IMG/VR virus record: IMGVR_UViG_3300036985_003389
Location: 1-60,218 of that record
Direction: 5' to 3' (one strand)
DNA: 60,218 nucleotides
DNA from: a virus
Under the pieces are notes generated by a model. That model made no database searches. It saw only the letters and a list, made by a program, of their open reading frames with translations, and was not told where the DNA came from. Positions 3,475 to 60,218 of this stretch are shown here, in pieces. The first letter of the stretch is position 1; each line of letters starts with the position of its first letter. Position numbers and translations under genes: made by a program.

Positions 3475-3600
3475 TGTCAGACTGCCCGCACCGGTGCATC
3501 CCGATCAGTCGTTCCGATTGATTCCGATCGCAGTTTCCGATCGATCCCGATCACCCATTCCGGGCGATCCCGATCAGGGTCACGAGCCTGTGGAATGAAG
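3475..3600. repeat. IS21 left terminal region with multiple subterminal repeats
   Basis: This non-coding end carries about five copies of a TTCCGATC / ATCCCGATC motif (near 3504, 3516, 3526, 3538 and 3565) before CACGAGCCTGTGG. These are probably transposase (IstA) binding sites, as is usual for IS21 ends. The same motifs appear in inverse orientation at the right end. Confidence 0.65.
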
Positions 3601-5203: not shown

Positions 5204-5216
5204 GGAGAAGACCAGC

Positions 5217-6397: not shown

Positions 6398-6505
6398 GAT
6401 CAGCCAACCCACCCGACGGCGCCGTCACAGACCGGCCCACACGCTCGCGACACCTGATCGCGATCCGTCGGAACACCCGATCGAGATCGCCGGAATGGGC
6501 AAACA
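6398..6505. repeat. IS21 right terminal region
   Basis: Non-coding end of the element containing CGCGATC, GATCGAGATC and CCGGAATGGGC repeats in inverse orientation to the left end, finishing GGGCAAACA at about 6505. It ends four bases before the tRNA-Gly core. Confidence 0.6.
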
Positions 6506-24000: not shown

Positions 24001-27000
24001 GCCGCTGTGAACGCGCCTGCCTCACGCAAGGCATGCACCGTCTCGTGCCATGCGCCACCGCGCGCCGTGTCTGGTCCGTACGCCAGCGTAACAGCCAGCA
24101 AGCGGCTGCCGTGCTCGTAGAAGCCGACCGGCTCGCCCTGGTCCTGCTGAGCCAGATGATCCGCCACACGGATTGCCACGTCGCGCGGGGCCATGCGCGC
24201 TATCTCAGCCTCGATGTCAGCGACGATCGCGGCCTTGCGCTCAGCGTAGCCAGGCCGGAATGAGCCGAGATTGCCGATCTGCGATTCCGCGGCTAGGCGA
24301 AAGAGGGGCTGGCCTTCCTCCATGACCGAACGCTTGACCGCCTCGGTCAGCGGGAATAGCGTGAAGCCCTTGCCAAGGCCAGTCTTGCCGCTTGGGCTGT
24401 CAAGAGTCTCGATCCTCTCGGGGGAAGGAGATGCCTTGTCGATCTTGGCGATCAAATTGCGAAGGTTCTTCGGGACAATGCCTTCGATCGCCGAGTTTTG
24501 AGCAACAAGCCGCTTAGCCGCCTTGAGGCCGGCTGCGTGCTCTTCCGCGGAAACACCGGAGGCGGCACCCTTCTCCAGTCTTTCAAGTTCACTCTTGTAA
24601 ACTTTCAGTTGTTTCGGCCTCTCGGCTCCGCCATAGAAGAACCGCATGCCAGCGTCGTCACCCGGATTATAGGACAGCACCGTATCGCCACTCGGGATGG
24701 CAATGTAGTCAGCCCCTGCCTCACTGGCCTGACGAATGGCACGGCGAAGGACAGTGTTAACCCACTGGTCAGTGGTGTTGACAAGGGGATTGCCGGGGGA
24801 ACCCGCTTCGGCAGTGGCAAGTTCAGCGCGAAGAAGACCTTGCTCAGAAATGGCGACATTCAAGTCAGTTGGCAGGCCGGTCGGATCGAGTTTTTTGATA
24901 CGGGCCAGGAAGCTCCGCACGTGGCCGGGAGGAATATCCTCGTATCGCGTTGCGCCAACGCTGTTTGTGAGGTTAGTCCAATCCATGCGCGACCTGTGGT
25001 CGGCGGGCAAGTCGGCAAGGTACTCGTCAATGTACGGCTTCGCCTGCGCCCGAAGATCGCCGACGCGATCATCTGCTGCTTTGGCCTTCGCCTTTAACTC
25101 AGCGATCTTCGCCTCGTCCCTGACGCCGCCATCGCGCAGATTCTGGCCCCAATCAGACTGAATCTGGTCAATCGTGAACACTGGCTTTCCACGATGCGTC
25201 GTCATAGACGTCATCATGTGGCCGATGATGTTGGGCTCGGGGAAATGACCAGATTGGAAGTTGCTGGCCTTGATCTCCTTCAATTCAGAAAGAAGTGCGG
25301 CATTCTCGCTTCTCGCTGCACGCAACGGTGCAAAGTCGGGGGTTGCCCGCAGATCCTTCGCCTGCTCGCTTATGTCATAAATGACGCGCTGATTTTCTTT
25401 CATACGCGCTTCAATTTCCTGCGCGCGTCGAGATTCCGGCAGATGCAGGACTGTCTCTCTGTATGTGGGGTTGGAAGAGTCGAGAGAGTGACGGGCCCAC
25501 TTGGTCGGGCCTGCTGCGCCAGACGGAACGGTGCTCGTTTCCGTGTAGGCTCCGCCACCGACAAGATCATTCATCATGTCGTCGTCGACTAAACCTCCGC
25601 CCAAGTCTTGCGTGTCGGTGGTTCCGTCGATCTGACCGCCATACTGCACTTCCTTCACCTGGACTCTATTCTCTTCCAGGAATTTGACGATTTCGGATTT
25701 AGTGACTTGTTTCAACGACGCCCGGCGGGGAGGAGACGCAGTGCGATCACCCTGGGGCTTCCATTCCCCAACAAAGGTGTCGCTCATGCGATCTTGCCCA
25801 GGGACAAGGGGGCGCATTTCGAGCGTCTCGATCACACCCTCTTTTGCGGGGGCCAGCAACTCACCAAGTTTTGTGGCTTCGATCTCTGCGTCCTTGACGC
25901 CAGCAGATTTGAGCTGTGCCAGCATTTGCTCTGGCGTGCCCTTGGCTTGCTTGAGCCCACGCGCTGCTTCCAGCGCCTTGCTGTAGTAGCCGAGTGCATC
26001 AAGATCGCGACGCATGGACTGGCCTGTGCCAGCATCCGGCGAGGATGGGCCACCGAACATGAACTGAGGTGTGCTGGTGTCGTCAGTGACTGGCGCCTGA
26101 GATGCGCCGGCAGTCAGCTGGCTAAGATCGGCCTCGGCTTTGGCGATCTCGGCCTGGGCTACTTCTTCTTGGGAGCCTTGTGCGGCTCCGCTTCGTTCAC
26201 CGCCGCGAGCAACCACTGGTCGTCGATCCACTCCATCCACTCGGGGGTTCCCCGAGGTGGCTCCGGCCCGAGGCCATAGTCCCTCGATTTCCAGTCCAGG
26301 AAGCCCGGCGACTTCCCACCGGTCGGCTCGCTCGTTGAAGGTGACTTTGGCGGTTTCATTGACCCTCCGATCCTCCTCTAGTATAGCAAGAAGCTTCGGA
26401 ATGTTCGAGTCTGTTAGGTCGAATTCCGTCGTCGGAACTGCACGGCCGGTCTTCCTCCAGCGCATGACTGCGCGTTCCATCGCCAGCGCCTTTGGCACAG
26501 ACACATGAACCACCGTGATCTGATAGCCATTGGCCGAGAACTGATCGACCAATTTATTGATACTGCTGCTGGAAGATCCAAGCTTTTCAACGATTATATT
26601 GCCGCCAGCGCTCACCATGCGCGCGACAGCATCCTTCATCATATTCGAGGCTTCTTCGTGCACGCCTCCGGAATTTTTGCCGTCGTCATATTCCGGGATA
26701 AGCAGCTTGGCATCGTCGCCGACCATGTGGGCCGCGCCGTGCCGTTCACCAACCTTCTTGGCAATGGTCGATTTGCCTGACCCTGGCATTCCCAGAAGAA
26801 TGAACAGCTTGCGCTCGTTCTTCTGCGCGCCTCCGGGAATCTTCTCGATCGCATCGTCAATCAGGAATTGAACGGCGTTGTCGTATCCAACGATTTCGCC
26901 CTGCGGCGTGTTGTAGGTACGCGCCGCCTTCCATTCTGGCGAGCCATAGCCTGGCTGTTTTTCCGTGTCCCGGCTCATGTCGGCAATGGTGGCCCGCGTC

Positions 27001-30000
27001 CATTCCTCGCTGTTCAGCGTCTGACGAATCGCGGCTTCGCGCTCGACATAGTCGGCCTCGGTGAACTTTTCCGGCGCCATCAATGTCCGATAGTAGGCAA
27101 GGAATTTCTGCCACTCCTGGCCGAGATAGGCTTGACCGCCGGCACTCGGATCGACAGGAGCCTTCTGCGAGAATGCGAAGTATTCCTTGTTGGCCCGATA
27201 GCGCGGCAACGACAGGCCGGCGCGCATCAGCGGAATCGCAGCCAAAGCCTTCGATGTCTTGCCGACACCATCCGCCCAGACATGATCGGTCATGTTGGTG
27301 CGCCACTCGATCCAGGCTGCGGTCTCCACCGGATCGGCATTCTCATCGTCGAGGCGCGCGGCAAGCTCCTCAGAGAATTGCTTGTAGGCAGCAGGCAAGT
27401 CTGCCACGCGCGTGTATGGGAACTTGTCGCTGTCGTCCTCGCGATAGAGAGCACCTTCCTTCAGAATGCCGCGATTGATCGCCAGTGCGATCTTGTCCAA
27501 TTCCTTGGCAAGTTCCGACGGCTTCAGAAGGGCCATCTGCTCGCGGCGCCGGTAGATGTCGGAGATCACACCCTGGAAATTCTCGACTGCGGAACGGGCG
27601 GCGAGATCCCCAGTCAGGCCTTCGGCCATCTGCCCGGCTTTGCCAACTGAGGCGCTGATGTCGACGATGCCGGCCGCCGTCCTGGACGTGGCCTTGAGAT
27701 TGGCCATGCCCTGTTCGACGTAAGCAGCCTCTGCCTTCGCATCATCGGGTGACTGCGTCTTGCCGAACTTGAGCACGCCCTCTAAGCGCTGCAGGCGCCT
27801 TGTTTTGCGGCGCAGTTCATCTGCACGCGGGAACGGTGTTGGCTGTGCTGCCTTGTCCAGGCCCGGCAGTTCCGTTTCCCAGCGCGCTATCCTGCCGCGT
27901 TGCATCTCGATGTGCTCGGGGATGGCGGCCACCATGCGCTCCCAGCGACGCACAAGCTGCACCGGATCGCTGGTCTCCGTGATCAGGAACGAGTCCATGG
28001 GGCTGTAGTCACGAACACCGACGATCTCGGGCTTGACCAGGATGCCATCGCTGGTGCGCTTGACGATCGCCTTCATCTGGAAGCCGGAGATGGTGCCGAT
28101 CTCGCTATCAGATCCGTAACCACCCCAGATTCTCGACCCAACGCCATGCAGATAGCCGCGGATCGCCTCGCCCGCCTTCTTGCGCTCCTTGAACCCGACG
28201 GGCCCGTCCGTGCCAACATCCAGTGTCACGCTGAACTTGTCGCCGGCCAGGTCCGTGACCTTCAGCGCATCTTCTTCATATGGGGCAAGATCAGCCTTGC
28301 TCTTTTCATTCATCGACCGGATCGTCGCGGCATTGGCTGCGGCGGCCTTGTGGCTCCGAACGTGGCCGCGTTCGGCCACCTGGAGCTGGCGCACCTCGCG
28401 CGACAACTCGGCATGCTCCATAATCAGCGGATTGCCGGTTGCTGCAGCTTTGAGCTCAGCCGCTTCTGGCAACGGCGGGTTGATATCCTCAGCATTTCGC
28501 ACGCCGAGCGCACCAGCGAACATTTGGCCAATAAAGATGGATTTGCGGTCAAGCAGCTGCCACCGGTAGGCATCGAACGAGCGCTTGGTGATGTAGCGCA
28601 GAATGCGAACTTCCGGGTTCTTGTTGCCCTGCCTGAGAATTCGGCCGTCGCGCTGCTCAACATCGGCTGGCTTCCACGGGGCATCGAGGTGGTGCATGGC
28701 GATCAACTGGCGCTGGACGTTGGTGCCAACGCCCATCTTGCCGGTCGATCCGAACAGCACACGCACCTCGCCGTTGCGCACCCTCTCGAACAGCTTGGCC
28801 TTCTTGTCATCGGTGTTCGCGTCGTGAATGAACGCGATCTGATCGGCGGGAATGCCCTTCTCGATCAGTCGGACCTTCATGTCCTCATAGAGATTGAACT
28901 TGCCGACCAGCATGGCCTTTGCTTCAACCTCGGCCTCGTCAACCTCGGCTTCAACCTCGGCATCCTCACTCGTCCCGCGCGCCTCATCGAGCAACTCGCG
29001 ACGGATTACATCGGCGATGTCAGTATCGACTGTGGCGCCAGATGTTCCAGTCGCTGGCGTGACCGTCGAACGCCTACCCCTTGAGCCAGGAACGCCCATG
29101 TCTAAAAAGACCAGCTGCGCCTTGTTGGGCGCGGCCGGATCGACGTTGCCGTCCTTCCAGATGTCGAAGATATTGCTGACCGCTCGACCGATCTTGCCAG
29201 TCGGATTGAACGGCGCGGTTGGATCTACCAAGCGCATGTCGGTTGCGAGCTGAATGCCCTTGGTGAACAGGGAAATGAACGGCGCACCCTCGCCCGGCTT
29301 CTTTCCCTTGGCCTCCTCCATCTCCTCGATCAGGCCTTGGATGGCCGATTCTTCGGTTTCGGATAGATCAACCTCGACAGCTTCGATTTTGCCCCCCTTC
29401 AGATTTGGGCGTGGCAGCTTCAGCATGTCAGCGGTCTGGGTATCCATGACCTCGCCGACGAGGCTCATCAGTTCTGGCATGTTGACGAACTGAGAGAACG
29501 ATTCCGTATCGACCCAATCGCGGGAATTCGATGACAGCTCGGATTTGGTGACGATCTTGCCGAACGTGCCGGCCCACGAATCGAATTGATGCAGGCCATA
29601 CTTGCGCAGCATTGGCCCCTGCAGATAGCGCTGCATCGTGTAAAGCTCGGCCATCGTGTTGGATACTAGCGTACCCGTCATGAACACAGCTGACCGGCCC
29701 GGCCGACTCTTTTCCAGATGCCCCATCTTCACATAGAGATCAGTGGCACGCTTAGACTCGCCCTTGTTCGAAATGCCCCTCACGCGACCATGACGAGTGG
29801 CGAAGTGCAGTGATTTGAACGTGTGGGCCTCGTCGACGAACATGAAATCGACACCCAGCTCCTCAAACGTTACGCCGTCGTCCTTCGACTCCTCGTCAGT
29901 CAATCTTTTCAGCCTGTTCTCAAGGCGTTTCTTGGCTTTTTCCAGATCCTTGACGGTCGGCGAATCTTCGCCCTCGTCTTTGGCTGCCTGATCTTTGGCG

Positions 30001-33000
30001 TCGAGCAAGTCCTGAATCTGCAGCTCGTAGTATTCGCGATACGTATCAGGCGACATGCCGACACGCGTGAACGCCGAGTGCGTGATGATGATGCCGTCCC
30101 ACGTGTCGGAAGCGACCTTGGCCGCAAACTCCCGGCGCCGATCACGGGACATCTGATCCTTGGTTGCAACCAGCAGCTTGGCATTCGGATAGGCTTGGTA
30201 GAACTCCGTCGAGAACTGCTCCAGCATGTGGTTCGGAACGACGAACATCGGGCGCTGCACCATGCCCAGACGCTTCATCTCCATGGATGCCATGATCGCC
30301 GTCCAGGTCTTGCCGGACCCGACAACGTGATTGAACAGCGTGTTGCCGCGCTGGATTACGCGCCAGATTGCATTGACGCGATGTGGCAGGAGATTGATCG
30401 TGCCTGTCGTGCCGTCGGGGAACGTGACGACACGGGCAAGCCCTGGAAATGTCAGATGCGAACCATCGTACTTCTGCGGCACGATGCGATTGAAGGTGTG
30501 ATTGTAAAGCTTTTCGAGTCGATCGGCCCGCTGCATGTCTTCCCATGCCCAGCCGTCAACGCCAAGATCCGAGTTGCCTGAAAACAAGTCTCGAATGGCA
30601 TCGATCTTAGCACGCGCCTCGGCTTCTGCCTCGGGGACGCGCACGCGGGTTTCGCCTTCCTCGCTCTGGACTGTATCTGTAATCACGACCGTATTGGAAT
30701 TGAGCGCATAATCCAGTATCTGGACAAGATTTTTTCGCGCTGTTCCGTAAGTATCGTTTGCCGCCAACGGGAAGTGACCAGACAGAACATTCCAGCGCGC
30801 ATTGGCCTCGTTGTAGACGAGCTCGACGCGGTGGCCTCCCAGCTTTTCCTCAAGGAATTTTTCATAGACCTCAGCTGGCACCCATGGGGCGCCAAACGGA
30901 ATCGTGATCTCAGACCTCGTGAGCTGTTCCGGCTGCACCTTTTCGAGAGATTCGACGTTGCGTCGATACCGCATAGGATCAAGCTCGGCTGCGATGCGCG
31001 CTTGGTCCAGTTTTTCGACGACATCGCCAGCCAGATACTCGGCATTGGTCTGCCAGATCTCGCCAGCCGGGTTCTCAAACACCTGATCGTCGAGGGACGC
31101 AATGGCCTCAGCTTGGTTGAGCCCGAGGCGCTTAGCGATCAACGGCATATCAACCTTGCCGGTCTCGTTCAGAGAAACGGCCAGGGCATCCGACGGCCCC
31201 GTGATGGCCGGTGTCTGGTAGGAGCCGACGATATCCTGATTGAAGATTGCCGCCTTCTTCGCGGTATCGGACTTCTCGTCGTAGACCTCGACCGCAGCCA
31301 CTTTGAAAGCGTCTGGATCTTCCTGGAACAGCGACAATGTCGGCTTGCGCCGGATGACAACCTCTTTGCCATCCTTGCGCGTCTGCTTGGTCACGATCGT
31401 GCGATTGATCGGCCCGTACCTCTCGACAAAATCATCATAGGCCTTGCCGAGCGCCTCCCGGTAGTCGTCCATACCAGCGCGATCGCCGCGCGCCTGCTTG
31501 GCCAGCATGTCATTGACGATGCTACGCAGGCCTATGAACCCGCGAACCTTGGCAGCAGCTTCCTTGCCGAAATTCTGTGGCTCGCCAACACCCTGCACCT
31601 TCCGATAGAGCGTGCCGTCCTTTTCGTAGAACGAGCCTTCCTTGATGCCGTCCGTCTCGGTATCAACATCCTGGCGCGGCTGATCGACGGCGGCAACGCC
31701 ACGCGGGATCATGGAGCCGGCCGGAATGTTGTCGGCGATGGCGTTGACGACCTTCATGCCGAGGCCGTCCGTAGAGCCGATCAGCACCGGCTCGCCCTTG
31801 CCGTACATCTTGCCAATCAGGCGCATCTTGCCGAGCATCATGTCGGGATGGGCCGCGAAGTAACCGTTGATGTCGGTCGCACCTTCCGGCGTCTTCACTT
31901 CAGACAGCGTGCGCCATTCCGGATTGCGATCTGGCTCGCCCTCCATCTTCTTGCGGAAGAAGATGATATCGGTGGTCACGTCCGTTCCGGCATTGGCCTT
32001 GAACGCGCCCTGGTTGCCGCCCGGCAAACGCACGGCGCCGAGGAACGTACCGCGCCTGTCCATCTCGCGCCGCGCCATCGTGCCGGCCTTGTCGAGCGTG
32101 CCGCTCGACGTGATGAAGGCAACGATGCCACCAGGCCGAACCTTGTCGAGCCCCTTGATGAAAAAATAATCGTGTAGCGTGAACTTGTTCTTGTAAGTCG
32201 GATCGTATGGACCTTCAGCGGCGAACGGCACATTCGAGATGGCCAGATCAAAATGATTGTCCGGCCACTTTTGCGTCTCGAAACCAGCAACGCGCACGTC
32301 GGCTGCCCCGTAGAGCGCCTTCGTGATCTCACCGGACAGGATATCGAGTTCGACCGCAGTCCACGCCGTATCGGCCCGCAGCTTGCCCGGCATGAGCCCA
32401 ATGAAGTGACCGATGCCAGCGGCCGGTTCGATCACGCGACCGCCCTTGAAACCCATGTGCTCCAAAGCGTCCCACATGGCCGTAATGACCTCAGGGGACG
32501 TGTAATGTGCGTTCGTGGTCGATGCTCGTGCTGCCGCATATTCGGCCGGCGTCAGCAAGTCTTTCAGCGCGTTGCGCTCGGCCTTCCATTCCGGCTTGTG
32601 ATCGGCGAACACGTCCTGGCTGAAAGCACCCCAACCCACATATTTGACGAGCTTGGCCTTTTCCTCGACCGTAGCCGGGCGCTTTTCTTCCTGCAGAACG
32701 CGAAGGATGCGAATCGCATCGATATTGCCGCGGACCTTGGCCTTGGGCCCGCCCTTGCCGATCTGGTCGGCCGGCGTGATCTGATAGTTTAGCGTCTCCC
32801 GGTCAGCACGAGCCAGCTCCTGCCGCTCGATCTCGGCGGCAACCTGATCGGCAACGGCTGCCTGTTGCTCGTCACTCAGGCTCGCGGAAGCGGGAGGTGG
32901 ATTAGCTCCGAGTTCACGATCTCCCGCACCTGTTCCGGTATTGCCTCCGTCACCTTCACCCTCTCCAGGTAGTCCGTCGGCAGGTCCGGATTGTCCATCA

Positions 33001-35678
33001 TCTGTGCGAACAGGTCGTCCCACATCTCCGTCGCTTCCTCCCCGATCTGCGAGAGGTGTTCCGCCAGCCGGCCCGATTTCTCCATTTCCTGATACTGCAT
33101 CGGATACGCCTTCTTCAGGAACTCTCTGCGCATCACCTCGAAGTGTTGTGCTGACGGCATTGGCGGCCCTCTCCGATCGCGTATCGAATAATGCTTTCAG
33201 CCTAACAAAAGCATCGCCCTTTGTCTTGGCCTTGAATCTCGTGCCCGTGTAGGCCGTGACGATCTCGTCCAGCACCTTCTTGGTGACAGCACGATCCTTG
33301 CGGATATCGGTCATGACAGCCGTGAACGCCGACTGATCGGTGCCGGCCGTTTCGAGCATGCCAGCGTAGTCCTTGGCAATCTCGGTCAGCTTGGTCCCGG
33401 TCTGGCGCTCGATGCTCTCGGCGCGCTTGAGCGCACGGAATGACGGATCGATCGTGATGGAAAACCCGCCATCGAACGTCTGCTTCGTGACTGGACCCGG
33501 CTCAGTGGCCGGCAGCTGCACAGTCTGTGCCGTCTTGGCCTTGGGCGTGCGCCTGATGGCCCCCTTCGCATCAACCCGGATCAGCCCTTGCTTGGCTGCC
33601 GCGTCGAGCATGGGCTTCATCTGAGCATCGGACACACCGAGCTGCTTGGCCCATGACTTGGCTGGCGTCTTGCCTGCGATGAGGCTGGCAAGCTGGGATT
33701 GTGGATTGGGTGGCGCGGCTGGGCCAGCAGGCTGGCCGCTGGTGGCCCCCCGGTCAGTCTTTAGATTGTTGGTCTCGTGATCGTATCGATCCAGAGATTG
33801 CCGGTAATAGGCCATCTCGGCCTTGCGCTCTGGCGTAGTCCCGTAGTCCCGCTCGTTCCCGAACGCAGACGTCTGGGCACGGCTTGCCCCGTTCTCACGC
33901 ACGGCCTTGTCGGCAATCGCATCGATCGCAGCCCGCCGTTCTACTGACAGGCCATCGCTGGAGGCCAGCGCGGGCTCCGGAGCGGCACTGCCGGCAAACA
34001 GGTCGGTCTGTCCCGCTTCAATCTCAGCCTGACGTGTCCGGCCGCGCTGCAATCCGTCCATGGTCTCGGACAGGTCGTCACGCTCGGCGACCAGATGCCG
34101 CCGCCTGGACGCGGCGGGGCCCTTGATGGCCGGACCGAGTGCTGCAATCTCCTGCTCGATCTCGGCCACCCGAGCCGTGCCACCGCGAATCGCCCGGTCA
34201 TACTCGACCGTGCTGTCCATCTCGACACTGGCCGTTGCCGTCGCGCCGTCCCATGCCTGGACTTCCTTGGCCCGCTCCAGTGCCTCGGCATCGGTGGCTT
34301 GTGCCACCTCCTGCTTGACCTGCTGCGCCATCAGCCCGTGCTTCTGGGCCGTCTCGGGATCGGCCGTGCGCACGAAATTGGCGACATCATCGAGATAGGG
34401 ATCGGGCGTGGCTGCCTTGGCCGGCGGTGCTTGCTCGTCCTTGCGCAATTGCGGTGATGAGCCGGGGCGCGCCTTGCCATCAGGTTCAGTCAGATAGGTT
34501 GCCGAGTCCGGGCCTTCCGTCGGCGTGGCTGGTCCGTCCGGCTTCTTTTCCGGTCGATTGCGCACCAGTGCACGGCTGCCGCCCTCTAATGGGCCGCCTG
34601 CGATGGCGCCCTGGATGAAGCTTTCCAGCATCTGGCTTTCGATCCCCTTCAGGAGATCGTCATGTGCCACGCCATAGGCATCGGCCAGCGAGCGCGTCTT
34701 GGCGTAGACCGGCGCCGTCAATTCAAGCGCGGTCTGGAGAAATTCGGTCGTTCCTTCCTTGACGCCACCGGCAGCGAAGCCCTTGACGAGGCTCTTGATC
34801 AGGTGATCCGAGACCTCCTTCTTGGCCTCGTGACTAAACGCCGTCATGATCTGCTTGAAACCCGGAATGTATTCCAGGGCACCGTGGGCAATACCGGCCG
34901 CATACAAAACGTCCTCGTGATCTTCCGGCTTCACGCCGTTGTCATCGAATGCCTTCCTGATCGCGCCAATACCCATTGTCGGCAGCAACACCGGCAGTAC
35001 CGCGCCACCGCTCGCAATGCCGGCCGCCACGATTGGCACGATCGAACCCATACCCTTGAAGAACGTGCTGTGCGCATATTCGCCAAGATCTGAAACGAAA
35101 TTCTCCTTACGGATATCGGCAGCGCTCTGCGGCGCTGATGGCTTCCAAAAAGGATTCTTGAGAAGCTCCTCGTTCTGATCAGCCATAGACTTGCCGTAGC
35201 CGGCAACGCCTTGGGAGATCGACTCGCCGAGCGAACCATCGTCAGTTCGCCTAGCTACGCTCTCGCCCATAGTTTGCATGCCGCGACCGAACTCACTTGC
35301 AACACCACGCGTCCCCTGAATGAAGCTCTTGCCTGTTTGGGTCGTAGCCGGGCCAATGACCGCATGCCCTGCAACCGTGCCGGCCACCGACGCCAAATCT
35401 CTAGACAGGTCATTCGCGAACGTATCGTTCTCCCAGCTTTGACGAGCCCAGTCGACCACTGCCGAGCCGATCGAATCGAAGAAACCACGCTCATGGCTCG
35501 ATCTCTGCTCAGCTTGACGCTGCTGCATCGTCTCGCTGATAATCTCGTCCGTGCCAGGAACCGCCGTCACTGGCGCCACCGGGGAACGAGGCATTTCAGT
35601 CATGCTGGGTGACGCACCGCCACTGTCCAGCGACCTCAATTCGTTGAGTAGATCGTCGTCGTTTCTATCGTCAGCCAT
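18042..35678 (-). CDS. Giant polyvalent virion protein (methyltransferase-helicase-kinase-peptidase, DarB-like)
   Basis: A 5878-residue protein (17.6 kb). In order it has: an N-terminal part with a hydrophobic stretch (about 205-235); an N6-adenine methyltransferase (VIEPAAGIGHF about 1083, DLAISNVPFA about 1146); an SNF2-type helicase (VVGSGKTWTAI about 1786, FVDEAHTF about 1947, QRDGRILRQGN about 2343); a zeta-like P-loop kinase (GMPGSGKSTIAKK about 2966); a domain with TIDQIQSDWGQ (about 3506); a zincin motif HETVH (about 3877); a GNAT-like segment (about 4130); a second zincin motif HEGGH (about 4443); coiled coil (about 4630-4830); and a C-terminal LPD38-like region with membrane helices (about 5236, 5376, 5437). 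It follows the M15 virion protein and precedes the fibre, the place of T7 gp16, so ejection into the host is likely. DarB of P1 protects DNA from restriction. Confidence 0.85.
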   Translation of the reverse strand: MADDRNDDDLLNELRSLDSGGASPSMTEMPRSPVAPVTAVPGTDEIISETMQQRQAEQRSSHERGFFDSIGSAVVDWARQSWENDTFANDLSRDLASVAGTVAGHAVIGPATTQTGKSFIQGTRGVASEFGRGMQTMGESVARRTDDGSLGESISQGVAGYGKSMADQNEELLKNPFWKPSAPQSAADIRKENFVSDLGEYAHSTFFKGMGSIVPIVAAGIASGGAVLPVLLPTMGIGAIRKAFDDNGVKPEDHEDVLYAAGIAHGALEYIPGFKQIMTAFSHEAKKEVSDHLIKSLVKGFAAGGVKEGTTEFLQTALELTAPVYAKTRSLADAYGVAHDDLLKGIESQMLESFIQGAIAGGPLEGGSRALVRNRPEKKPDGPATPTEGPDSATYLTEPDGKARPGSSPQLRKDEQAPPAKAATPDPYLDDVANFVRTADPETAQKHGLMAQQVKQEVAQATDAEALERAKEVQAWDGATATASVEMDSTVEYDRAIRGGTARVAEIEQEIAALGPAIKGPAASRRRHLVAERDDLSETMDGLQRGRTRQAEIEAGQTDLFAGSAAPEPALASSDGLSVERRAAIDAIADKAVRENGASRAQTSAFGNERDYGTTPERKAEMAYYRQSLDRYDHETNNLKTDRGATSGQPAGPAAPPNPQSQLASLIAGKTPAKSWAKQLGVSDAQMKPMLDAAAKQGLIRVDAKGAIRRTPKAKTAQTVQLPATEPGPVTKQTFDGGFSITIDPSFRALKRAESIERQTGTKLTEIAKDYAGMLETAGTDQSAFTAVMTDIRKDRAVTKKVLDEIVTAYTGTRFKAKTKGDAFVRLKALFDTRSERAANAVSTTLRGDAQRVPEEGVSDAVSGNGEIGPAGGTPLADRGGSDGDVGRPVRTDDGQSGPADGLPGEGEGDGGNTGTGAGDRELGANPPPASASLSDEQQAAVADQVAAEIERQELARADRETLNYQITPADQIGKGGPKAKVRGNIDAIRILRVLQEEKRPATVEEKAKLVKYVGWGAFSQDVFADHKPEWKAERNALKDLLTPAEYAAARASTTNAHYTSPEVITAMWDALEHMGFKGGRVIEPAAGIGHFIGLMPGKLRADTAWTAVELDILSGEITKALYGAADVRVAGFETQKWPDNHFDLAISNVPFAAEGPYDPTYKNKFTLHDYFFIKGLDKVRPGGIVAFITSSGTLDKAGTMARREMDRRGTFLGAVRLPGGNQGAFKANAGTDVTTDIIFFRKKMEGEPDRNPEWRTLSEVKTPEGATDINGYFAAHPDMMLGKMRLIGKMYGKGEPVLIGSTDGLGMKVVNAIADNIPAGSMIPRGVAAVDQPRQDVDTETDGIKEGSFYEKDGTLYRKVQGVGEPQNFGKEAAAKVRGFIGLRSIVNDMLAKQARGDRAGMDDYREALGKAYDDFVERYGPINRTIVTKQTRKDGKEVVIRRKPTLSLFQEDPDAFKVAAVEVYDEKSDTAKKAAIFNQDIVGSYQTPAITGPSDALAVSLNETGKVDMPLIAKRLGLNQAEAIASLDDQVFENPAGEIWQTNAEYLAGDVVEKLDQARIAAELDPMRYRRNVESLEKVQPEQLTRSEITIPFGAPWVPAEVYEKFLEEKLGGHRVELVYNEANARWNVLSGHFPLAANDTYGTARKNLVQILDYALNSNTVVITDTVQSEEGETRVRVPEAEAEARAKIDAIRDLFSGNSDLGVDGWAWEDMQRADRLEKLYNHTFNRIVPQKYDGSHLTFPGLARVVTFPDGTTGTINLLPHRVNAIWRVIQRGNTLFNHVVGSGKTWTAIMASMEMKRLGMVQRPMFVVPNHMLEQFSTEFYQAYPNAKLLVATKDQMSRDRRREFAAKVASDTWDGIIITHSAFTRVGMSPDTYREYYELQIQDLLDAKDQAAKDEGEDSPTVKDLEKAKKRLENRLKRLTDEESKDDGVTFEELGVDFMFVDEAHTFKSLHFATRHGRVRGISNKGESKRATDLYVKMGHLEKSRPGRSAVFMTGTLVSNTMAELYTMQRYLQGPMLRKYGLHQFDSWAGTFGKIVTKSELSSNSRDWVDTESFSQFVNMPELMSLVGEVMDTQTADMLKLPRPNLKGGKIEAVEVDLSETEESAIQGLIEEMEEAKGKKPGEGAPFISLFTKGIQLATDMRLVDPTAPFNPTGKIGRAVSNIFDIWKDGNVDPAAPNKAQLVFLDMGVPGSRGRRSTVTPATGTSGATVDTDIADVIRRELLDEARGTSEDAEVEAEVDEAEVEAKAMLVGKFNLYEDMKVRLIEKGIPADQIAFIHDANTDDKKAKLFERVRNGEVRVLFGSTGKMGVGTNVQRQLIAMHHLDAPWKPADVEQRDGRILRQGNKNPEVRILRYITKRSFDAYRWQLLDRKSIFIGQMFAGALGVRNAEDINPPLPEAAELKAAATGNPLIMEHAELSREVRQLQVAERGHVRSHKAAAANAATIRSMNEKSKADLAPYEEDALKVTDLAGDKFSVTLDVGTDGPVGFKERKKAGEAIRGYLHGVGSRIWGGYGSDSEIGTISGFQMKAIVKRTSDGILVKPEIVGVRDYSPMDSFLITETSDPVQLVRRWERMVAAIPEHIEMQRGRIARWETELPGLDKAAQPTPFPRADELRRKTRRLQRLEGVLKFGKTQSPDDAKAEAAYVEQGMANLKATSRTAAGIVDISASVGKAGQMAEGLTGDLAARSAVENFQGVISDIYRRREQMALLKPSELAKELDKIALAINRGILKEGALYREDDSDKFPYTRVADLPAAYKQFSEELAARLDDENADPVETAAWIEWRTNMTDHVWADGVGKTSKALAAIPLMRAGLSLPRYRANKEYFAFSQKAPVDPSAGGQAYLGQEWQKFLAYYRTLMAPEKFTEADYVEREAAIRQTLNSEEWTRATIADMSRDTEKQPGYGSPEWKAARTYNTPQGEIVGYDNAVQFLIDDAIEKIPGGAQKNERKLFILLGMPGSGKSTIAKKVGERHGAAHMVGDDAKLLIPEYDDGKNSGGVHEEASNMMKDAVARMVSAGGNIIVEKLGSSSSSINKLVDQFSANGYQITVVHVSVPKALAMERAVMRWRKTGRAVPTTEFDLTDSNIPKLLAILEEDRRVNETAKVTFNERADRWEVAGLPGLEIEGLWPRAGATSGNPRVDGVDRRPVVARGGERSGAAQGSQEEVAQAEIAKAEADLSQLTAGASQAPVTDDTSTPQFMFGGPSSPDAGTGQSMRRDLDALGYYSKALEAARGLKQAKGTPEQMLAQLKSAGVKDAEIEATKLGELLAPAKEGVIETLEMRPLVPGQDRMSDTFVGEWKPQGDRTASPPRRASLKQVTKSEIVKFLEENRVQVKEVQYGGQIDGTTDTQDLGGGLVDDDMMNDLVGGGAYTETSTVPSGAAGPTKWARHSLDSSNPTYRETVLHLPESRRAQEIEARMKENQRVIYDISEQAKDLRATPDFAPLRAARSENAALLSELKEIKASNFQSGHFPEPNIIGHMMTSMTTHRGKPVFTIDQIQSDWGQNLRDGGVRDEAKIAELKAKAKAADDRVGDLRAQAKPYIDEYLADLPADHRSRMDWTNLTNSVGATRYEDIPPGHVRSFLARIKKLDPTGLPTDLNVAISEQGLLRAELATAEAGSPGNPLVNTTDQWVNTVLRRAIRQASEAGADYIAIPSGDTVLSYNPGDDAGMRFFYGGAERPKQLKVYKSELERLEKGAASGVSAEEHAAGLKAAKRLVAQNSAIEGIVPKNLRNLIAKIDKASPSPERIETLDSPSGKTGLGKGFTLFPLTEAVKRSVMEEGQPLFRLAAESQIGNLGSFRPGYAERKAAIVADIEAEIARMAPRDVAIRVADHLAQQDQGEPVGFYEHGSRLLAVTLAYGPDTARGGAWHETVHALREAGAFTAAEWKSLLDRAAKIGIDEKIRTLRPDGTSHPALPEYATTYYLQARRMGMNDMRDVRDFVVERLNQERVARMAQDWSSGTRYGAAIDALLSRMVEIMQAIKTVLNKYGFNDLADLFERAEVSGIRARMTDGVLRDRIKSLTTPEQLEQRAQVLALYVPAGQAVLEQWGGTPSFSFGSSVQRPATQQPFSAAGMSGSVSIRTNEDGTELRTYSIGDGVASLVLSRDAMGRHEVASIRVKDEMLGRGVSSALFDAVERDLSTVVSSNGWLSEDAYRYWQKRNGESVAHHVNGGPMFDGAWIGPAQLDRMIAAMEAANEPDRLQYLIELRRGIPPEALAQSRMDVLFGVVRGAARRASELVARADQDGLGVSLGSSMASVVDYANTVTKLLGGMPLFSIRAFDDSQTAMPNEPTADPDTFAVARDMASNGSPEIEIFLSTGWARDGRGNWQFIGLEQAIADDNGGSGGGAAPQFMFGKGRDRKVKPITEIIANLKDVLGMNATQGLYGLTVEGVQTGKKSRTFRPTQFVAGQYDRLTGTQRYRLSTDIDNVAHEGGHHIERLFGTDLAHIKMRHRAELEALSTQQGNQLSEGFANFFRDYILRPDHVQQMAPNFLAEFEDFLDGHGPEILEAIERLHLLQSRQEWQDYIRATDLERAHANLKSEADNSFTKRFSDFYESIGQSRTISGFSHAVYEAGVDQNHQWYLAVSKFLARADENLKADDKGRAISLAVHENPYKLMRSIGDSFKTGLRWIQDGMPNYRDTSFRSPSLHDALSLAMGKTWSLGKHQSFGVYLESRRAAEEWKVWTAKQYKIADIAGKLSNIDAVRPALADLSRKLSDRVERLISRQIGDATLVQDRQRSASAAEKELADIGQRLDQLKDELAGAEMATAMNSDERQSLISRKQRQIAMWERKQADAVRRMESVTADRDEREIGESAQGNMLEQLQAQAEDAANRLKGIDTYARELSAELADTKKNGMQRNPHAISQDIHEQRIERLESENPTFKDAAQMVYDFQWQQVLHDQQAGRLTQAEVDYRRTRKDWYVPFARDISDVDADAAGPGGAGIKRFSKDKRFLGSDRNVIHPIETIMDQTFHRAAATHYNEVILSLKALAERVGPGGSAIAEVVDQSEIVEASAAEFDRLREHLVSLGYDAHDADEMIKRIEHDFTDTQLLLKWAPGSFGAKRPLLIPYWENGDRKMIRINDPEFAAGVVETLNGIGREMSSLMIDMIAKPATLLRMGVTTHPAFIATNILRDMVSAWTLTGSIMHPSTWPIITQARGLYHEVAQTDMARLYQEVAGLMGGQNVAALSAARDKVDVMALKAKGLQIKPLSMGLSMAAGGIAGGMMMGPAGAMSGAMVGAATHQSGSPSKWFANLAYLSDMSETATRLGVFTQAYKAALAYNPSLTPYQAAQEAAFVARDLIDFGRHGSRMLVAAKLVPFLNAQIQGLDKAQRTFLALSDRGKELSSAKMGGAIVVAGALGTLVGGPIAGSIAGTVTAAILAHAAARVDSVRELLAPFYKQQNGLPLSADSEKALATSAMAWTNLVLYTGVLLSFMALYRDDDEYRRINARIKNKAQPVKINGEWYQIPKAFELAIPSIFIEAAIDAQTKGDPNFWERVNEGLWDSLSPPLVPQAVRMWRDIGANYNSLSKRSIISEHMQALPPQEQFGAYASHFAISLSRMVNESTAKKPVEKVGSAIFQNKFELTPAIIDYALQSGLGYWGKDIQKTSNVSRPNGPRTGNIIEYPLIGTMVQRFQIDPDRASDAHGAYYEVMGKQGDGYIRAAKGYEHYLKLGLVDQNGRAQANAYLATLESDEARAYAVIEQQTSNRKKNAHPLNRARDMLRVVKGLQGDILTERLVDSSSRTEPVPIKLTPKQADSARDVLNTLAAIETENALIALRHKQFATRKLRDPQPAIDLLASISMELANQFDLRVSRGSSGTTIFQKVRIPDWKETVEGWPVLRDEMLEGWRDAGSERVSGSRRIRVK
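26159..26359 (-). CDS. Tryptophan-rich small ORF nested in the giant gene (other frame)
   Basis: A 66-residue ORF out of frame with the giant gene, over its linker after the P-loop kinase (giant residues about 3106-3173, reading GATSGNPRVDGVDRRPVVAR). The nested product has a protein-like composition: FLDWKSRDYGLGPEPPRGTP, then EWMEWIDDQWLLAAV and a Lys-rich end. Upstream of its ATG lies AGAGGAGGATCGGAGGGTCA, an unusually rich Shine-Dalgarno region. I do not recognise the family. As with the ORF at 32.9-33.2 kb, a good start signal and sensible sequence coincide with a low-complexity stretch of the host frame. Confidence 0.45.
   Translation of the reverse strand: MKPPKSPSTSEPTGGKSPGFLDWKSRDYGLGPEPPRGTPEWMEWIDDQWLLAAVNEAEPHKAPKKK
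32876..33160 (-). CDS. TnpV-like small ORF nested in the giant gene (other frame)
   Basis: A 94-residue ORF in a different frame from the giant gene, over its low-complexity linker (giant residues about 840-934, Gly/Asp/Pro-rich) just before the methyltransferase. It reads like a real helical protein: RREFLKKAYPMQYQEMEKSG, RLAEHLSQIGEEATEMWDDL, then PEQVREIVNSELIH. That order resembles the TnpV family (a RREYLK start, SGKLxxHL and an EIVxNELIY end). The ATG has GGAGAGG seven bases upstream. The giant frame here is compositionally poor, so the nested frame may carry the information. It is either a true overprinted gene or the relic of a separate gene before the giant gene was fused. Confidence 0.5.
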   Translation of the reverse strand: MPSAQHFEVMRREFLKKAYPMQYQEMEKSGRLAEHLSQIGEEATEMWDDLFAQMMDNPDLPTDYLERVKVTEAIPEQVREIVNSELIHLPLPRA

Positions 35679-35687
35679 GAGGTTCCG

Positions 35688-35978
35688 ATGCTGGATTACA
35701 TGATCAACACAACGGCACTAACGCTCGGTGCGACCGTCATTGCATTGCCGGTCATTTTATTGATTCGTGGACCGCTATGGGTGCGGATAGTAGTTGGTGC
35801 CGTGCTCGGCGCTGCCCCTTCGGCATTCATCGCGTGGACAGGAAGCCTCGATGCTGGCACCGACGATCATCTGTTGCGCATGGCACTTGGCGCGATGATC
35901 GGAGCGTCCACTGCCTGGCTCGTCTGGGGTGCGCAAAGGAACGCCAGAACCGAGCCACCAGCGCGCCCGTGGCGATAG
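35688..35978 (+). CDS. Predicted small membrane protein on the opposite strand
   Basis: A 96-residue ORF on the plus strand filling the 303-bp gap between the M15 virion gene and the giant gene, both of which are on minus. It has three likely membrane helices: about 9-26 (LTLGATVIALPVILLI), 31-50 (WVRIVVGAVLGAAPSAFI) and 66-84 (MALGAMIGASTAWLVW), with a basic C-terminus. ATG 35688 is ten bases from the giant gene's start codon, head to head. GAGG lies five bases upstream. A holin or antiholin would have this size and topology, but the location is not the lysis cassette. It would need its own promoter. Confidence 0.5.
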   Translation: MLDYMINTTALTLGATVIALPVILLIRGPLWVRIVVGAVLGAAPSAFIAWTGSLDAGTDDHLLRMALGAMIGASTAWLVWGAQRNARTEPPARPWR

Positions 35979-52878: not shown

Positions 52879-53550
52879 CTAGTTGAGCTTGAAGCTGATG
52901 CCGGCACGAATGACGGTATCGGCCTGGCCGATGGTCGCCGTCTCGCCGGCCAGCGTGAACTTCTCGTCCGACCATGCGTAATGCAGCCCTTCCAGGCGCA
53001 GCGTGACCGTGTTGGTCAGTGCCGCCTCGATACCGGCGCCGACCACGAGGCCGACAACGTAGGCCTTGTCGCTGGCGTTGATGCCCTGGTCGTCGACCTT
53101 GAGCACGGACTCCTGCATAGCCAGGCCGCCGGTGCCATAGATCAGCGCCAGACCAATCGGAACGCCGAGCCGGGCGCGGGCACTGGCCATCCAGCGATTG
53201 GACATCGTGACCGTCGTAGAGCCGTCCGTGATGGACGGCTTCACATCGCGCAACATGCCGTCCAGCTCGAGGCCGTAGTAGAGGCCGCCGGCCACGACAC
53301 CCCAGCCGATGTAGAGGCCACCGAACGCACCATCATCGGCAATGCTCGGCATCTCCGACGTCTTGAGCGACGACGCATTGAGACCACCAGTCACGCCGAT
53401 ATAGCCACCGTCATGCATGCTGCCGATCGACTCGGCCGTCGGTGCGGCGCCGGTCGCCAGCATGGGCTGCTGCTGAGCAATGGCCGGCGTGTTGAACAGC
53501 AGGCATAGGCCGGCACCCGCCAGGATGGCGGCGGTAACGCGCTTGATCAT
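52879..53550 (-). CDS. Outer-membrane beta-barrel protein (Omp25/Lom-like)
   Basis: A 223-residue secreted protein. It has an N-terminal signal peptide (AAILAGAGLCLLFNTPAIA, cleavage after about residue 25). The rest shows alternating amphipathic strands typical of eight-stranded barrels: GGYIGVTGGLNASSL, GLYIGWGVVAGGLYYGLELD, ARARLGVPIGLALIYGTGGL, TVTLRLEGLHYAW. It ends in AGISFKLN, a final strand close to the usual aromatic C-terminal signal. Many alphaproteobacterial OmpA/Omp25 proteins have this plan. In a phage it may block or modify receptors, as lambda Lom and other lysogenic conversion genes are thought to do. Confidence 0.75.
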   Translation of the reverse strand: MIKRVTAAILAGAGLCLLFNTPAIAQQQPMLATGAAPTAESIGSMHDGGYIGVTGGLNASSLKTSEMPSIADDGAFGGLYIGWGVVAGGLYYGLELDGMLRDVKPSITDGSTTVTMSNRWMASARARLGVPIGLALIYGTGGLAMQESVLKVDDQGINASDKAYVVGLVVGAGIEAALTNTVTLRLEGLHYAWSDEKFTLAGETATIGQADTVIRAGISFKLN

Positions 53551-54041: not shown

Positions 54042-54060
54042 TCCCCACCCCCAACGCAAA

Positions 54061-54086
54061 ATGGCCCGCGATTCACATCGGGGCCA
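54061..54086 (-). terminator. Possible weak intrinsic terminator (minus strand)
   Basis: On the minus strand TGGCCC and GGGCCA form a six-base stem around a 13-base loop, followed by TTTTGCG. The same TTTTGCGTTGGGG sequence lies upstream of the tail fibre start at 17948, also behind a GC-rich inverted repeat. It would end transcripts from the repressor region. Confidence 0.35.
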
Positions 54087-54323: not shown

Positions 54324-54599
54324 TTACGCCTCAGTTGAGGACAATCGCGCTTTCTTGCTTTCGAAATAGCCGAAGCCCTCGCACGCGTCGCAGAACTCGG
54401 GGTGGCCCTCCGAGTCGATGCGATCCACCTGATGCCCATCGCAGACGGGGCAGACCGAGAGCCCGTGCTGCTCCACCACGTCGCAAAGCTTGGAATCCAC
54501 GAAGTTGCTCAGGCTCCGTCGGTCCATGACCGCGAGCTTTTTCAGTGCGTCCCTGAGTCCGGGACGCAGCCGCATTGAGAAGGGTGTTGTCTGTTTCAT
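54324..54599 (-). CDS. Ribbon-helix-helix repressor with DnaJ-like zinc module
   Basis: A 91-residue protein from ATG 54599. Residues 1-48 form an Arc/CopG-type ribbon-helix-helix: TPFSMRLRPGLRDALKKLA as strand and first helix, then RRSLSNFVDSKLCDVVE. Residues 52-80 have CPVCDGHQVD and FCDACEGFGYF, two CxxCxG motifs like the zinc-binding repeats of DnaJ. Longer starts at 54617 and 54638 would place the first operator repeat inside the gene. Four GTAGCGC repeats directly upstream are its likely binding sites, so it should repress itself and the divergent membrane-protein gene. Confidence 0.75.
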   Translation of the reverse strand: MKQTTPFSMRLRPGLRDALKKLAVMDRRSLSNFVDSKLCDVVEQHGLSVCPVCDGHQVDRIDSEGHPEFCDACEGFGYFESKKARLSSTEA

Positions 54600-54608
54600 G
54601 TACTCATT

Positions 54609-54684
54609 GTAGCGCATTTGATTGCGTTTGCCATGCACGAATATGTGAACGTAGCGCCGTTGATACGTAGCGCAATGTAGCGCA
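54609..54684. promoter_or_regulatory. Four GTAGCGC operator repeats
   Basis: GTAGCGCA occurs at 54609-54616, 54667-54674 and 54677-54684, and GTAGCGCC at 54651-54658, all in the same direction. The last two start exactly 10 bp apart, one DNA turn, the spacing ribbon-helix-helix repressors use for side-by-side dimers. They lie in the spacer of the rightward promoter. Confidence 0.7.
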
Positions 54685-54688
54685 TATT
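54660..54688 (+). promoter_or_regulatory. Rightward sigma70-type promoter
   Basis: TTGATA at 54660-54665 (five of six consensus bases), 17 bp spacer, CATATT at 54683-54688 (four of six). Two operator repeats fall within or at the edge of the spacer, so repressor binding would exclude polymerase. Transcription should start near 54695 and read the leader of the membrane-protein gene. Confidence 0.6.
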
Positions 54689-54704
54689 GGTTACGTCAAC
54701 TGAC

Positions 54705-54745
54705 GGGCTGCATCGGTTTTGATCGCACCAATGCAGCCCTTTTTT
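54705..54745 (+). terminator. Attenuator-like intrinsic terminator in the leader
   Basis: GGGCTGCAT (54705-54713) pairs perfectly with ATGCAGCCC (54731-54739), followed by six T residues. It lies between the promoter and the start codon at 54781, so most transcripts would stop before the gene unless termination is prevented. No upstream plus-strand gene needs it. Confidence 0.7.
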
Positions 54746-54780
54746 AAACCCCACCACCTGAGGCAACAGGAGATAGAGCT

Positions 54781-55698
54781 ATGTCTACCGAATACCGCTG
54801 GACGCATGCCGTTGCAACCGGGCTCGCATGCGGAGCCATTGCTTATCAAACCGCCGTCATCTGGGAACAGCTAATCGGCGTCTCGACGACAACCAAGATG
54901 GGCGTGCCACTGGCTACCGTCTCGGCCGCCCTACTGCCGGTGCTGGCCGAGGCCGCATGGCGCGGTGGCGAGCGCACCAAGGCGCTGTTGCTGGGCCTGC
55001 CGGTGCTGGTCCTGCTGGCCTTCGTGCTGCCGTCTGGCATCAGTCGGCTGGGTGAAGTCCAGGAGGCCCGCGTCTCGGCAGCCGTCGTCGGACAGGCCGA
55101 TCAGGCTAAGGCCCGCTCCGATCTAACCAAGGCCGACAAACTGGTTACCCAGGCTGAAGGATGGGTGGCGAGCGAATGCGGATCGGGTGCCGGTCCGAAG
55201 TGCAAGGGCGTCACCTACACGCTGAACCAGCGACAGGCCTACCAGCGCGAACTCGCGGCAAAGGTCGAGGGCAGCAGCCCCGTCACGACGCCCTGGCTGC
55301 CGGCGTGGCACCCGGCGCTGCTGCCGATCGGCCTCGAGATCGCAATCCTGGCCAGCCTGTTCTACGGCATGGGCCCGCTCACACGAGTTCAGGCTGCCGC
55401 GGCGATTGCCTTCCCGACTCCGGTCGAAAGTTCTTCGGCCTTGGCCAATCCAGTGCCCGGAACTTTTTTCGCCATTACTGAACGGGACTTCGCGGTCGAG
55501 CCGATCACCGAGAAGGAGATCGACGAGATCAAGCGCGTGGTCGGCGCCGAAGGTCTCATGAACAAGGAACTGGCCGCGAAGCTCCAGGTCAGCCAAGGCC
55601 AGTGCAGCAAGCTCGTCACTGCCGCAATCGCCGATGGGAAACTTTCCAAGATCGTCAATCCGGCCAATCGTCGGGCAGTTTTGATCCGCGCTGCCTGA
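54781..55698 (+). CDS. Membrane protein with C-terminal winged-helix-like domain
   Basis: A 305-residue protein, the only plus-strand gene with good support right of the IS region besides the small one at 35.7 kb. It has three N-terminal membrane helices (about 8-27, 38-58, 65-86), a long coiled segment (about 90-165, ARSDLTKADKLVTQAEGWVA), a fourth helix (about 178-198, LLPIGLEIAILASLFYG), and a C-terminal domain (about 235-305) with EKEIDEIKRVVGAEGLMNKE and LAAKLQVSQGQCSKLVTAAI, a helix-turn-helix pattern. A membrane-held DNA-binding protein suggests sensing of membrane state or tethering of DNA. GGAGATAGAGCT precedes the ATG. It is controlled by the operator/attenuator upstream. Confidence 0.7.
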   Translation: MSTEYRWTHAVATGLACGAIAYQTAVIWEQLIGVSTTTKMGVPLATVSAALLPVLAEAAWRGGERTKALLLGLPVLVLLAFVLPSGISRLGEVQEARVSAAVVGQADQAKARSDLTKADKLVTQAEGWVASECGSGAGPKCKGVTYTLNQRQAYQRELAAKVEGSSPVTTPWLPAWHPALLPIGLEIAILASLFYGMGPLTRVQAAAAIAFPTPVESSSALANPVPGTFFAITERDFAVEPITEKEIDEIKRVVGAEGLMNKELAAKLQVSQGQCSKLVTAAIADGKLSKIVNPANRRAVLIRAA

Positions 55699-55729
55699 TC
55701 CACGAAAGCTTTCCGGCCGGAATGTTCGG

Positions 55730-55760
55730 GCCCGATAGGATCATCCTGCCGGGCTCTTTA
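55730..55760 (+). terminator. Intrinsic terminator after the membrane-protein gene
   Basis: GCCCG-AT-AGGAT pairs with ATCCT-GC-CGGGC (55730-55754), followed by TCTTTAT. It ends the rightward transcript 32 bases after its stop, facing the leftward replication genes. Confidence 0.6.
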
Positions 55761-59561: not shown

Positions 59562-60218
59562 CGGCGACCTCCTGGCGAGCTGCTCTCGACGCCATCCAGG
59601 CCTTGTGGCTCTCGGATGCCTTCCTGTCGTACTCGGCCGCCTTTTCAGCGCTTTGGCGTTTTTCCTCAGCGACGCGTTTGACGTGAGCGGCCAACATCGC
59701 ATCGGCGTCGATTTTCTTCGGCGGAGGCCGCTTGGCTGCGGCGTCAGTGATCGGCTGTGCCTTTCGCGTGCCGTCCAGACGCCGGTCGCGCGCTTCGTAG
59801 ACAGCGTCAGTGAAGTAATCCCAGGCTCTGACCTTGCCGCCCCGCTTCCGGCTGGCAACCGCTGCCAGCGTCGGCAAAACGTCGAATTCGAGATCGCAAC
59901 CGCCTCCGATCCACGACAGCGGAATTGCACAGGTTGCCAGCCCATGTCGGTTAACCGGATCGTCCAGTGATCGCTCGGCAGCAGCGATCAGGCGCCGGGA
60001 CAACTCGACAAGATCGACGCCAGAAACAGGAGGTCCACTCCAATTTTTATGAACATCGTTCTCGATGGCGGCAGCATCTACTGCTACTGCTCTTCTTTGG
60101 CTATTGGCTAGTGGCTCACTAAGAGGCCCATTGATTTCATTGACTGATTTCGAAAAGACTAGGGGGGTATCTAGGGGGGTATCTAGGGGGGTATCTAGGG
60201 GGGTATCTAGGGGGGTAT
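59548..60218 (-). CDS. Replication-region protein with TPLD repeats, 5'-truncated
   Basis: The frame is open to the right edge, so the N-terminus is missing. It begins in the window with repeated TPLD (five 12-bp units), then VFSKSVNEINGPLSEP, a middle domain NRHGLATCAIPLSWIGGGCD and VRAWDYFTDAVYEARDRR, and a Lys/Ala/Glu-rich coiled C-terminus. Proteins with such ends next to phage primases are often replication initiators with an N-terminal winged helix, but that part is not visible. The TTG at 60003 is only an internal codon. The stop overlaps the zinc-domain ORF start. Confidence 0.6.
   Translation of the reverse strand, partial: TPLDTPLDTPLDTPLDTPLVFSKSVNEINGPLSEPLANSQRRAVAVDAAAIENDVHKNWSGPPVSGVDLVELSRRLIAAAERSLDDPVNRHGLATCAIPLSWIGGGCDLEFDVLPTLAAVASRKRGGKVRAWDYFTDAVYEARDRRLDGTRKAQPITDAAAKRPPPKKIDADAMLAAHVKRVAEEKRQSAEKAAEYDRKASESHKAWMASRAARQEVADVAF
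60159..60218. repeat. Five tandem copies of a 12-bp G-rich repeat at the window edge
   Basis: CTAGGGGGGTAT is repeated five times without a change, ending exactly at the last base. On the coding (minus) strand it encodes TPLD in frame. Each unit carries six consecutive G on the plus strand with six-base spacers, so four-stranded G structures are possible. Confidence 0.95.

What the first reader, a model, noticed from the sequence alone, without database searches (positions are those of the whole stretch)
54609..54745. Compact switch: repressor operators inside a promoter spacer followed by an attenuator
TTGATA-N17-CATATT has GTAGCGCA repeats 10 bp apart in its spacer, two more repeats toward the divergent repressor gene, and a perfect nine-base terminator hairpin with six T ten bases after the predicted start. 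The single gene it drives encodes a membrane protein with a DNA-binding-like end. Two layers of control on one lone gene suggests a decision point, perhaps of lysogeny or plasmid maintenance.
Basis: partly seen in the sequence, partly recalled or inferred. Interest (0 to 1): 0.65.

Follow-up and report, generated by a model that had tools for sequence, protein, structure and literature searches.

The report
Phage divergent repressor–membrane-regulator switch
In an uncultured phage, a small repressor gene and a gene for a membrane protein with a DNA-binding-like tail are fired in opposite directions from one short control region studded with repressor-type repeats; relatives keep the layout but swap the repressor and repeats, so it looks like a compact genetic switch, although no experiment has tested it.

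Summary
TTGATA-N17-CATATT, four GTAGCGC repeats and a 9-bp GC-rich hairpin followed by T6 are at the stated coordinates; the repeat cluster and hairpin exceed chance, the promoter match alone does not. Five further IMG/VR phage lineages carry the membrane/HTH gene. In the three where a divergent repressor was identified, a sigma70-like promoter with a 17-bp spacer drives the rightward unit. The repressor (RHH plus zinc-finger-like; CopG-type RHH; or Cro-like HTH) has a divergent promoter whose -10 box ends 6-7 nt before its ATG, with little or no Shine-Dalgarno: probably leaderless mRNA. In two of those, repeats sit at similar promoter positions with different letters. Best reading: an autoregulated divergent repressor/operator switch, working like P22 immI, controlling a 4-TM protein with a C-terminal HTH. 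The hairpin is conserved in position, but its T-run (terminator potential) only occurs here; no alternative fold or leader peptide was seen, so "attenuator" is unproven. Lysogeny is plausible only indirectly (integrase in one relative, IS21-like element and OMP gene here). Plasmid maintenance has no positive support. New variant of a known kind.

The parts
54324..54599 (-). 91-aa divergent repressor candidate: ribbon-helix-helix (Arc/CopG type) N-terminus plus CxxC...CxxC zinc-finger-like C-terminus
   Evidence: PHROG Arc-like repressor E 0.0029; Foldseek PDB matches mostly RHH proteins (Arc, AmrZ, PutA, CopG) but all weak, best E 0.41; weak DnaJ zinc-finger matches; relative in L005 at 35% identity
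54606..54634 (-). promoter candidate of the repressor: ATGGCA (54634-54629), N17, TACAAT (54611-54606); -10 ends 6 nt before the ATG at 54599, no usable SD, so probably leaderless mRNA
   Evidence: like arrangement in L005 and L002 (6 nt) and L004 (7 nt, coordinates)
54608..54617 (+). operator-like repeat TGTAGCGCAT overlapping the -10 of the repressor promoter
54636..54647 (.). central palindrome-like element CACGAATATGTG between the two promoters; related elements in L005, L004 and L001 (weaker in L007)
   Evidence: better than all of 60 shuffle sets
54650..54657 (+). repeat copy CGTAGCGC just upstream of the rightward -35
54660..54688 (+). rightward promoter candidate TTGATA-N17-CATATT; predicted start near 54695
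   Evidence: counterparts with N17 in L005, L004 and L002
54666..54675 (+). repeat CGTAGCGCAA in the promoter spacer
54676..54685 (+). repeat TGTAGCGCAT running into the rightward -10
54705..54745 (+). GC-rich hairpin (9-bp stem plus 3-bp extension) followed by T6; predicted intrinsic terminator
54757..54772 (+). Shine-Dalgarno AGGAG (54768-54772) with a possible short CCTG/CAGG stem over it; L005 reads CCTA/TAGG
54781..55698 (+). 305-aa protein: four hydrophobic segments, coiled-coil-like loop between the third and fourth with Cys133 and Cys141, C-terminal helix-turn-helix-like domain
   Evidence: HTH-type hits in this protein and homologues, weak for this protein itself
55728..55754 (+). weak terminator-like hairpin after the membrane gene; in L001, L002, L004 and L007 a strong terminator lies here
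54058..54086 (-). terminator-like hairpin with T4 downstream of the repressor gene, suggesting a single-gene unit

Best explanation
This is a divergent repressor/operator switch of a probably temperate phage. The small RHH protein is made from a leftward promoter whose transcript begins at or next to the AUG, and it binds the TGTAGCGC repeats. One site overlaps its own -10 and three flank or fill the spacer of the rightward promoter, so it should repress itself mildly and the rightward promoter strongly. When repression is lifted, the rightward promoter transcribes the membrane protein, whose HTH tail would lie in the cytoplasm and could bind DNA. A terminator-like hairpin in the short leader probably lowers leaky expression of this protein. 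Shown by sequence: the repeats, hairpin, gene families and the layout in relatives. Inferred: promoter use, binding, leaderless start, termination, topology and the function of the membrane protein.
For: Repeat cluster beyond chance. Rightward promoters with 17-bp spacers at the corresponding place in L005, L004 and L002. Leftward promoters ending 6-7 nt before the repressor ATG in all four; best score reached at 0.1% of random window positions, 0.8-1.4% of shuffles per phage (where L004 was measured from a slightly wrong start; corrected). Repressor genes have weak SDs (+0.3 to -4.1 kcal/mol) against -5.3 to -7.4 for the rightward genes. Different repeats at similar places in L005 and L004. 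Divergent DNA-binding gene in each: RHH, CopG-type RHH or Cro-like HTH. Hairpin d-score highest in the window.
Against: No binding, transcript or termination data. No operator pair was identified in L002, and no divergent repressor in L001 or L007. The window promoter matches only 9 of 12. Window and L005 share ancestry in the control region, so the comparisons are not fully independent. Some window genes also lack a good SD. The structure models are poor (pLDDT 55-56). The terminator is not conserved. No integrase was found in this record.
Confidence: 0.6

Rival explanations
1. Regulated attenuator: the T6 hairpin ends most rightward transcripts at about 50 nt, and a phage or host antitermination factor lets them through when the membrane protein is needed.
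For: Strong hairpin plus T6 directly after the promoter; NusG-family genes lie just past the membrane gene in five relative records.
Against: No T-run in the leader hairpin of any relative; no NusG paralogue found in this record; no alternative fold or leader ORF.
Confidence: 0.2
2. The hairpin is mainly a 5' mRNA or intercistronic stability/processing element conserved before this gene, and its T-run is incidental in this phage.
For: A stable hairpin precedes the start in every relative although arm letters differ; L004 and L005 have small genes and further hairpins upstream.
Against: Highest terminator score of the window by the formula used; stable hairpins are common in these GC-rich intergenic regions, so conservation of position is weak evidence.
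Confidence: 0.25
3. The rightward promoter mainly makes a roughly 50-nt terminated small RNA that acts in trans; the membrane gene is expressed only by read-through.
For: Promoter, short leader and strong terminator spacing fit a small RNA gene.
Against: No Rfam match at gathering cut-off; no T-run in relatives; a good SD and a conserved protein follow. Target pairing was not tested.
Confidence: 0.08
4. The membrane protein anchors or organises phage DNA at the membrane rather than regulating transcription, with the repressor only timing its synthesis.
For: 4-TM plus coiled-coil-like loop plus DNA-binding-like tail; phage phi29 p16.7 is a membrane DNA-binding protein (own knowledge; review PMC4974454 found but not read).
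Against: No sequence relation was tested. The HTH part differs between relatives while the membrane part is conserved, which fits changing DNA specificity better than general anchoring.
Confidence: 0.15

Closest known systems
P22 immI region (mnt / arc-ant) of P22-like phages
   Same: [quoted passage not shown] Here too an RHH gene lies divergent from the controlled gene.
   Different: The controlled gene is a 4-TM HTH-like protein, not the antirepressor Ant. One RHH with a zinc-finger-like tail, no second one found. No relative in phages of INPHARED.
Lambda/PY54-type cI-cro switch with leaderless repressor mRNA
   Same: Divergent promoters, operators in promoters, repressor mRNA predicted to start at the AUG; PY54 cI and cro mRNAs are leaderless and lambda cI likewise (PMC4488713). 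L002 has a Cro-like HTH in this place.
   Different: The window repressor is RHH, not HTH; no Cro counterpart on the right; leaderless start only predicted.
ToxR/CadC-type one-component membrane regulators
   Same: A transmembrane protein that combines a sensing part and a DNA-binding part (CadC: PMC5430869 abstract).
   Different: Four predicted TM segments and a C-terminal DNA-binding-like part; CadC-type proteins have one TM and an N-terminal one (own knowledge). No sequence relation found; DNA binding not shown.
Intrinsic-terminator attenuators
   Same: Terminator-like hairpin plus T6 between promoter and gene.
   Different: No alternative antiterminator fold or leader peptide; not conserved as a terminator.

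Membership tests
RHH repressor (Arc/CopG superfamily) | beta strand then two helices (RHH fold) | tested here: inconclusive
   Two helices at 15-25 and 30-45 (pLDDT 74-85) but the strand is not resolved in the monomer model; PDB matches mostly RHH folds, all with E above 0.4; PHROG Arc-like E 0.0029. Pfam RHH/Arc models did not hit below E 1. Supportive, not strong.
RHH repressor (Arc/CopG superfamily) | binds repeated operator at its own promoter | not testable with these tools
   Repeats lie at both promoters; needs a binding assay
P22 immI-type cassette | divergent RHH repressor gene beside the regulated promoter | tested here: met
   Window, L005 and L004, as far as the RHH assignment holds
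P22 immI-type cassette | controls an antirepressor (ant) | tested here: not met
   Controlled gene is a membrane HTH-like protein with no antirepressor hit; so it is not filed as immI, only as working like it
Transcription attenuator | intrinsic terminator between promoter and gene | tested here: met
   Sequence prediction only: d-score +11.6
Transcription attenuator | a switch between terminated and read-through states (alternative RNA fold, leader peptide or antiterminator) | tested here: inconclusive
   No leader ORF; terminator stem pairing probability 0.96-0.997; no NusG paralogue in the record; other antiterminators not tested
Temperate phage immunity region | integrase or partition genes in the same genome | tested here: inconclusive
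   Tyrosine integrase in G004 (L004) only; none in this possibly incomplete record. Partition and serine recombinase families were not searched.
Leaderless repressor mRNA | transcription starts at the AUG | not testable with these tools
   Predicted from -10 spacing and weak SD

The most novel reading that the evidence does not exclude
The 305-aa protein founds a phage family of membrane-spanning one-component regulators: an extracytoplasmic coiled-coil part with two conserved cysteines senses the envelope (for example a superinfecting phage or host state) and a C-terminal HTH, exchangeable between relatives, acts back on the phage switch, with the repressor and operators swapped in step.
Probability: 0.15. 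Interest if true: 0.7.

Novelty: new variant of a known kind. Interest (0 to 1): 0.42.

Why it matters
If right, it gives a phage switch in which one gene layout is kept while the repressor and its operators are replaced, and whose output is a membrane protein with a DNA-binding-like tail rather than an antirepressor or Cro. It would be a small, testable model of how immunity specificities change, and a possible case of a phage sensing the cell envelope directly. If only the switch part is right, it is a useful annotation of an uncultured phage group without close relatives in the phage, plasmid or bacterial genome collections searched here.

Tried and rejected
No relatives of the two proteins were found in INPHARED phages, and none of the membrane protein in PLSDB plasmids (one search gave only weak Arc-like hits for the L005 repressor); the pattern-based scans of GTDB genomes found none of either, which does not exclude distant ones. 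A DNA pattern of the central element found only the L005 phage again in viral contigs. No Rfam family and no tRNA. A further operator field elsewhere in the window: other GTAGCGCA hits are single. Relation of the membrane protein to Tetrasphaera phage TJE1 orf6: Foldseek E 2.7e-5 but TM 0.2 on a poor model and no profile match, so rejected as proof. Relation to the terminase-side membrane family A6: hhalign E 5.7e-4 but probability 30%, left open. In one search the L004 start was set 2-3 nt off; the distance given here (7 nt) is recomputed.

Full report
Setting. The window is a 60,218-base IMG/VR virus record. Terminase, portal-like, tail and internal virion hits and a 5,878-aa open frame suggest a podovirus-like phage. 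Neither protein of interest has a relative in INPHARED; the membrane protein has none in PLSDB; pattern scans of GTDB genomes found none.

Observation. All elements exist at the stated places; one of the four repeats is GTAGCGCC rather than GTAGCGCA. The repeat cluster is beyond chance: 4 of 5000 shuffles. The promoter match alone is not (6 found, 5.5 expected). The hairpin is the only perfect 9-bp stem followed by a T-run and has the highest terminator score in the window (+11.6).

Proteins. The divergent 91-aa protein is best read as an RHH repressor with a CxxC...CxxC zinc-finger-like tail: PHROG Arc-like E 0.0029, model helices matching Arc, AmrZ, PutA and CopG, all weakly, and weak DnaJ-finger hits. 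The 305-aa protein has four hydrophobic segments, a long helical loop with two cysteines kept in all five sequences that reach that region, and a C-terminal HTH-like region. HTH-type support is weak in the window protein (E 0.01-0.09) and better in L001 (E 3.8e-5). The membrane part is about 60% identical in the relatives while the C-terminal part differs between the L001/L007 and window/L002/L004 types.

Relatives. Six other records carry the membrane gene, in five distinct lineages since L002 and L003 match in this region. L005 has the same RHH-zinc type beside it (35%), L004 a CopG-type RHH, L002 a Cro-like HTH next to the intergenic region; in L001 and L007 no divergent repressor was recognised. 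Rightward promoters TTGACT-TATATT, TTGACG-TATATT and TTGACA-TATTGT, each with 17 bp, lie at the corresponding place; in L004 and L005 they first serve small genes. Repeats in L005 (TGTATYACACCCGA) and L004 (GACGAMAAATCAC) occur once at each promoter: same layout, different letters. A shared CGAAWAWGTG element lies between the promoters in the window, L005 and L004, and in inverse in L001; it beat all of 60 shuffle sets, but was picked after the fact.

Leaderless repressor. The -10 box ends 6 nt before the ATG in the window, L005 and L002. For L004 one search used a start 2-3 nt off; from the coordinates the distance is 7 nt. Such a score occurs at about 0.1% of random positions. SD pairing of the four repressor starts is +0.3 to -4.1 kcal/mol, against -5.3 to -7.4 for the rightward genes. 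PY54 and lambda repressor mRNAs are leaderless (PMC4488713).

Hairpin. Every relative has a stable hairpin before the membrane gene, but without the T-run, and with d-scores of -18 to -54; in L001, L002, L004 and L007 a strong terminator instead follows the gene. In the window the downstream hairpin is weaker. Hence terminator potential in front of the gene is a feature of this phage, not of the family. No leader peptide or competing structure is seen. NusG-family genes lie beyond the membrane gene in five relative records but not in this one.

Interpretation. An autoregulated divergent switch is the best-supported reading, most like P22 immI in working (PMC8022706, PMC2629481, PMC11016777), though without an antirepressor it is not filed as that region. 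Lysogeny is plausible only by indirect signs: integrase in one relative, IS21-like genes and an OMP barrel gene here. Nothing was found for plasmid maintenance, but partition families were not searched. The attenuator claim needs an in-vitro test.

Noticed in passing
window 3668-6044: Adjacent genes resembling an IS21-type transposase and its ATPase helper (istA/istB order inferred) inside a phage record; short repeat arrays at 3498-3576 and 6450-6495 could be element ends. No target duplication was established.
   Followed up: partly
window 60159-60218: Exact 12-bp tandem array CTAGGGGGGTAT x5 at the very end of the record; may be an assembly artefact.
   Followed up: no
window 52879-53550: Outer-membrane beta-barrel gene (PF13505, E 3.6e-9) near the terminase side; L001 and L007 seem to carry a similar gene at the same side. 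Possibly a lysogenic conversion gene.
   Followed up: partly
window 35514-35978: The only 10-of-12 sigma70-like match of the window (TTGACG-N18-GATAAT) points at a lone rightward 96-aa hydrophobic ORF just outside the start of the giant leftward gene.
   Followed up: no
L002 2729-3847, L004 2725-3807, L005 2056-3087, L007 2424-3443: A second family of membrane proteins with a coiled-coil-like loop and a CxxxC motif on the terminase side; possibly a distant paralogue of the finding's membrane protein (hhalign E 5.7e-4, probability 30%).
   Followed up: partly
window 18042-35678: Single open frame of 5,878 aa in the structural region.
   Followed up: no
L002 4929-4964, L004 4930-4965, L007 4797-4830: Leader hairpins of L002/L004 and L007 share the core GGTGTTAGCGCACC, but in opposite orientation.
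   Followed up: no
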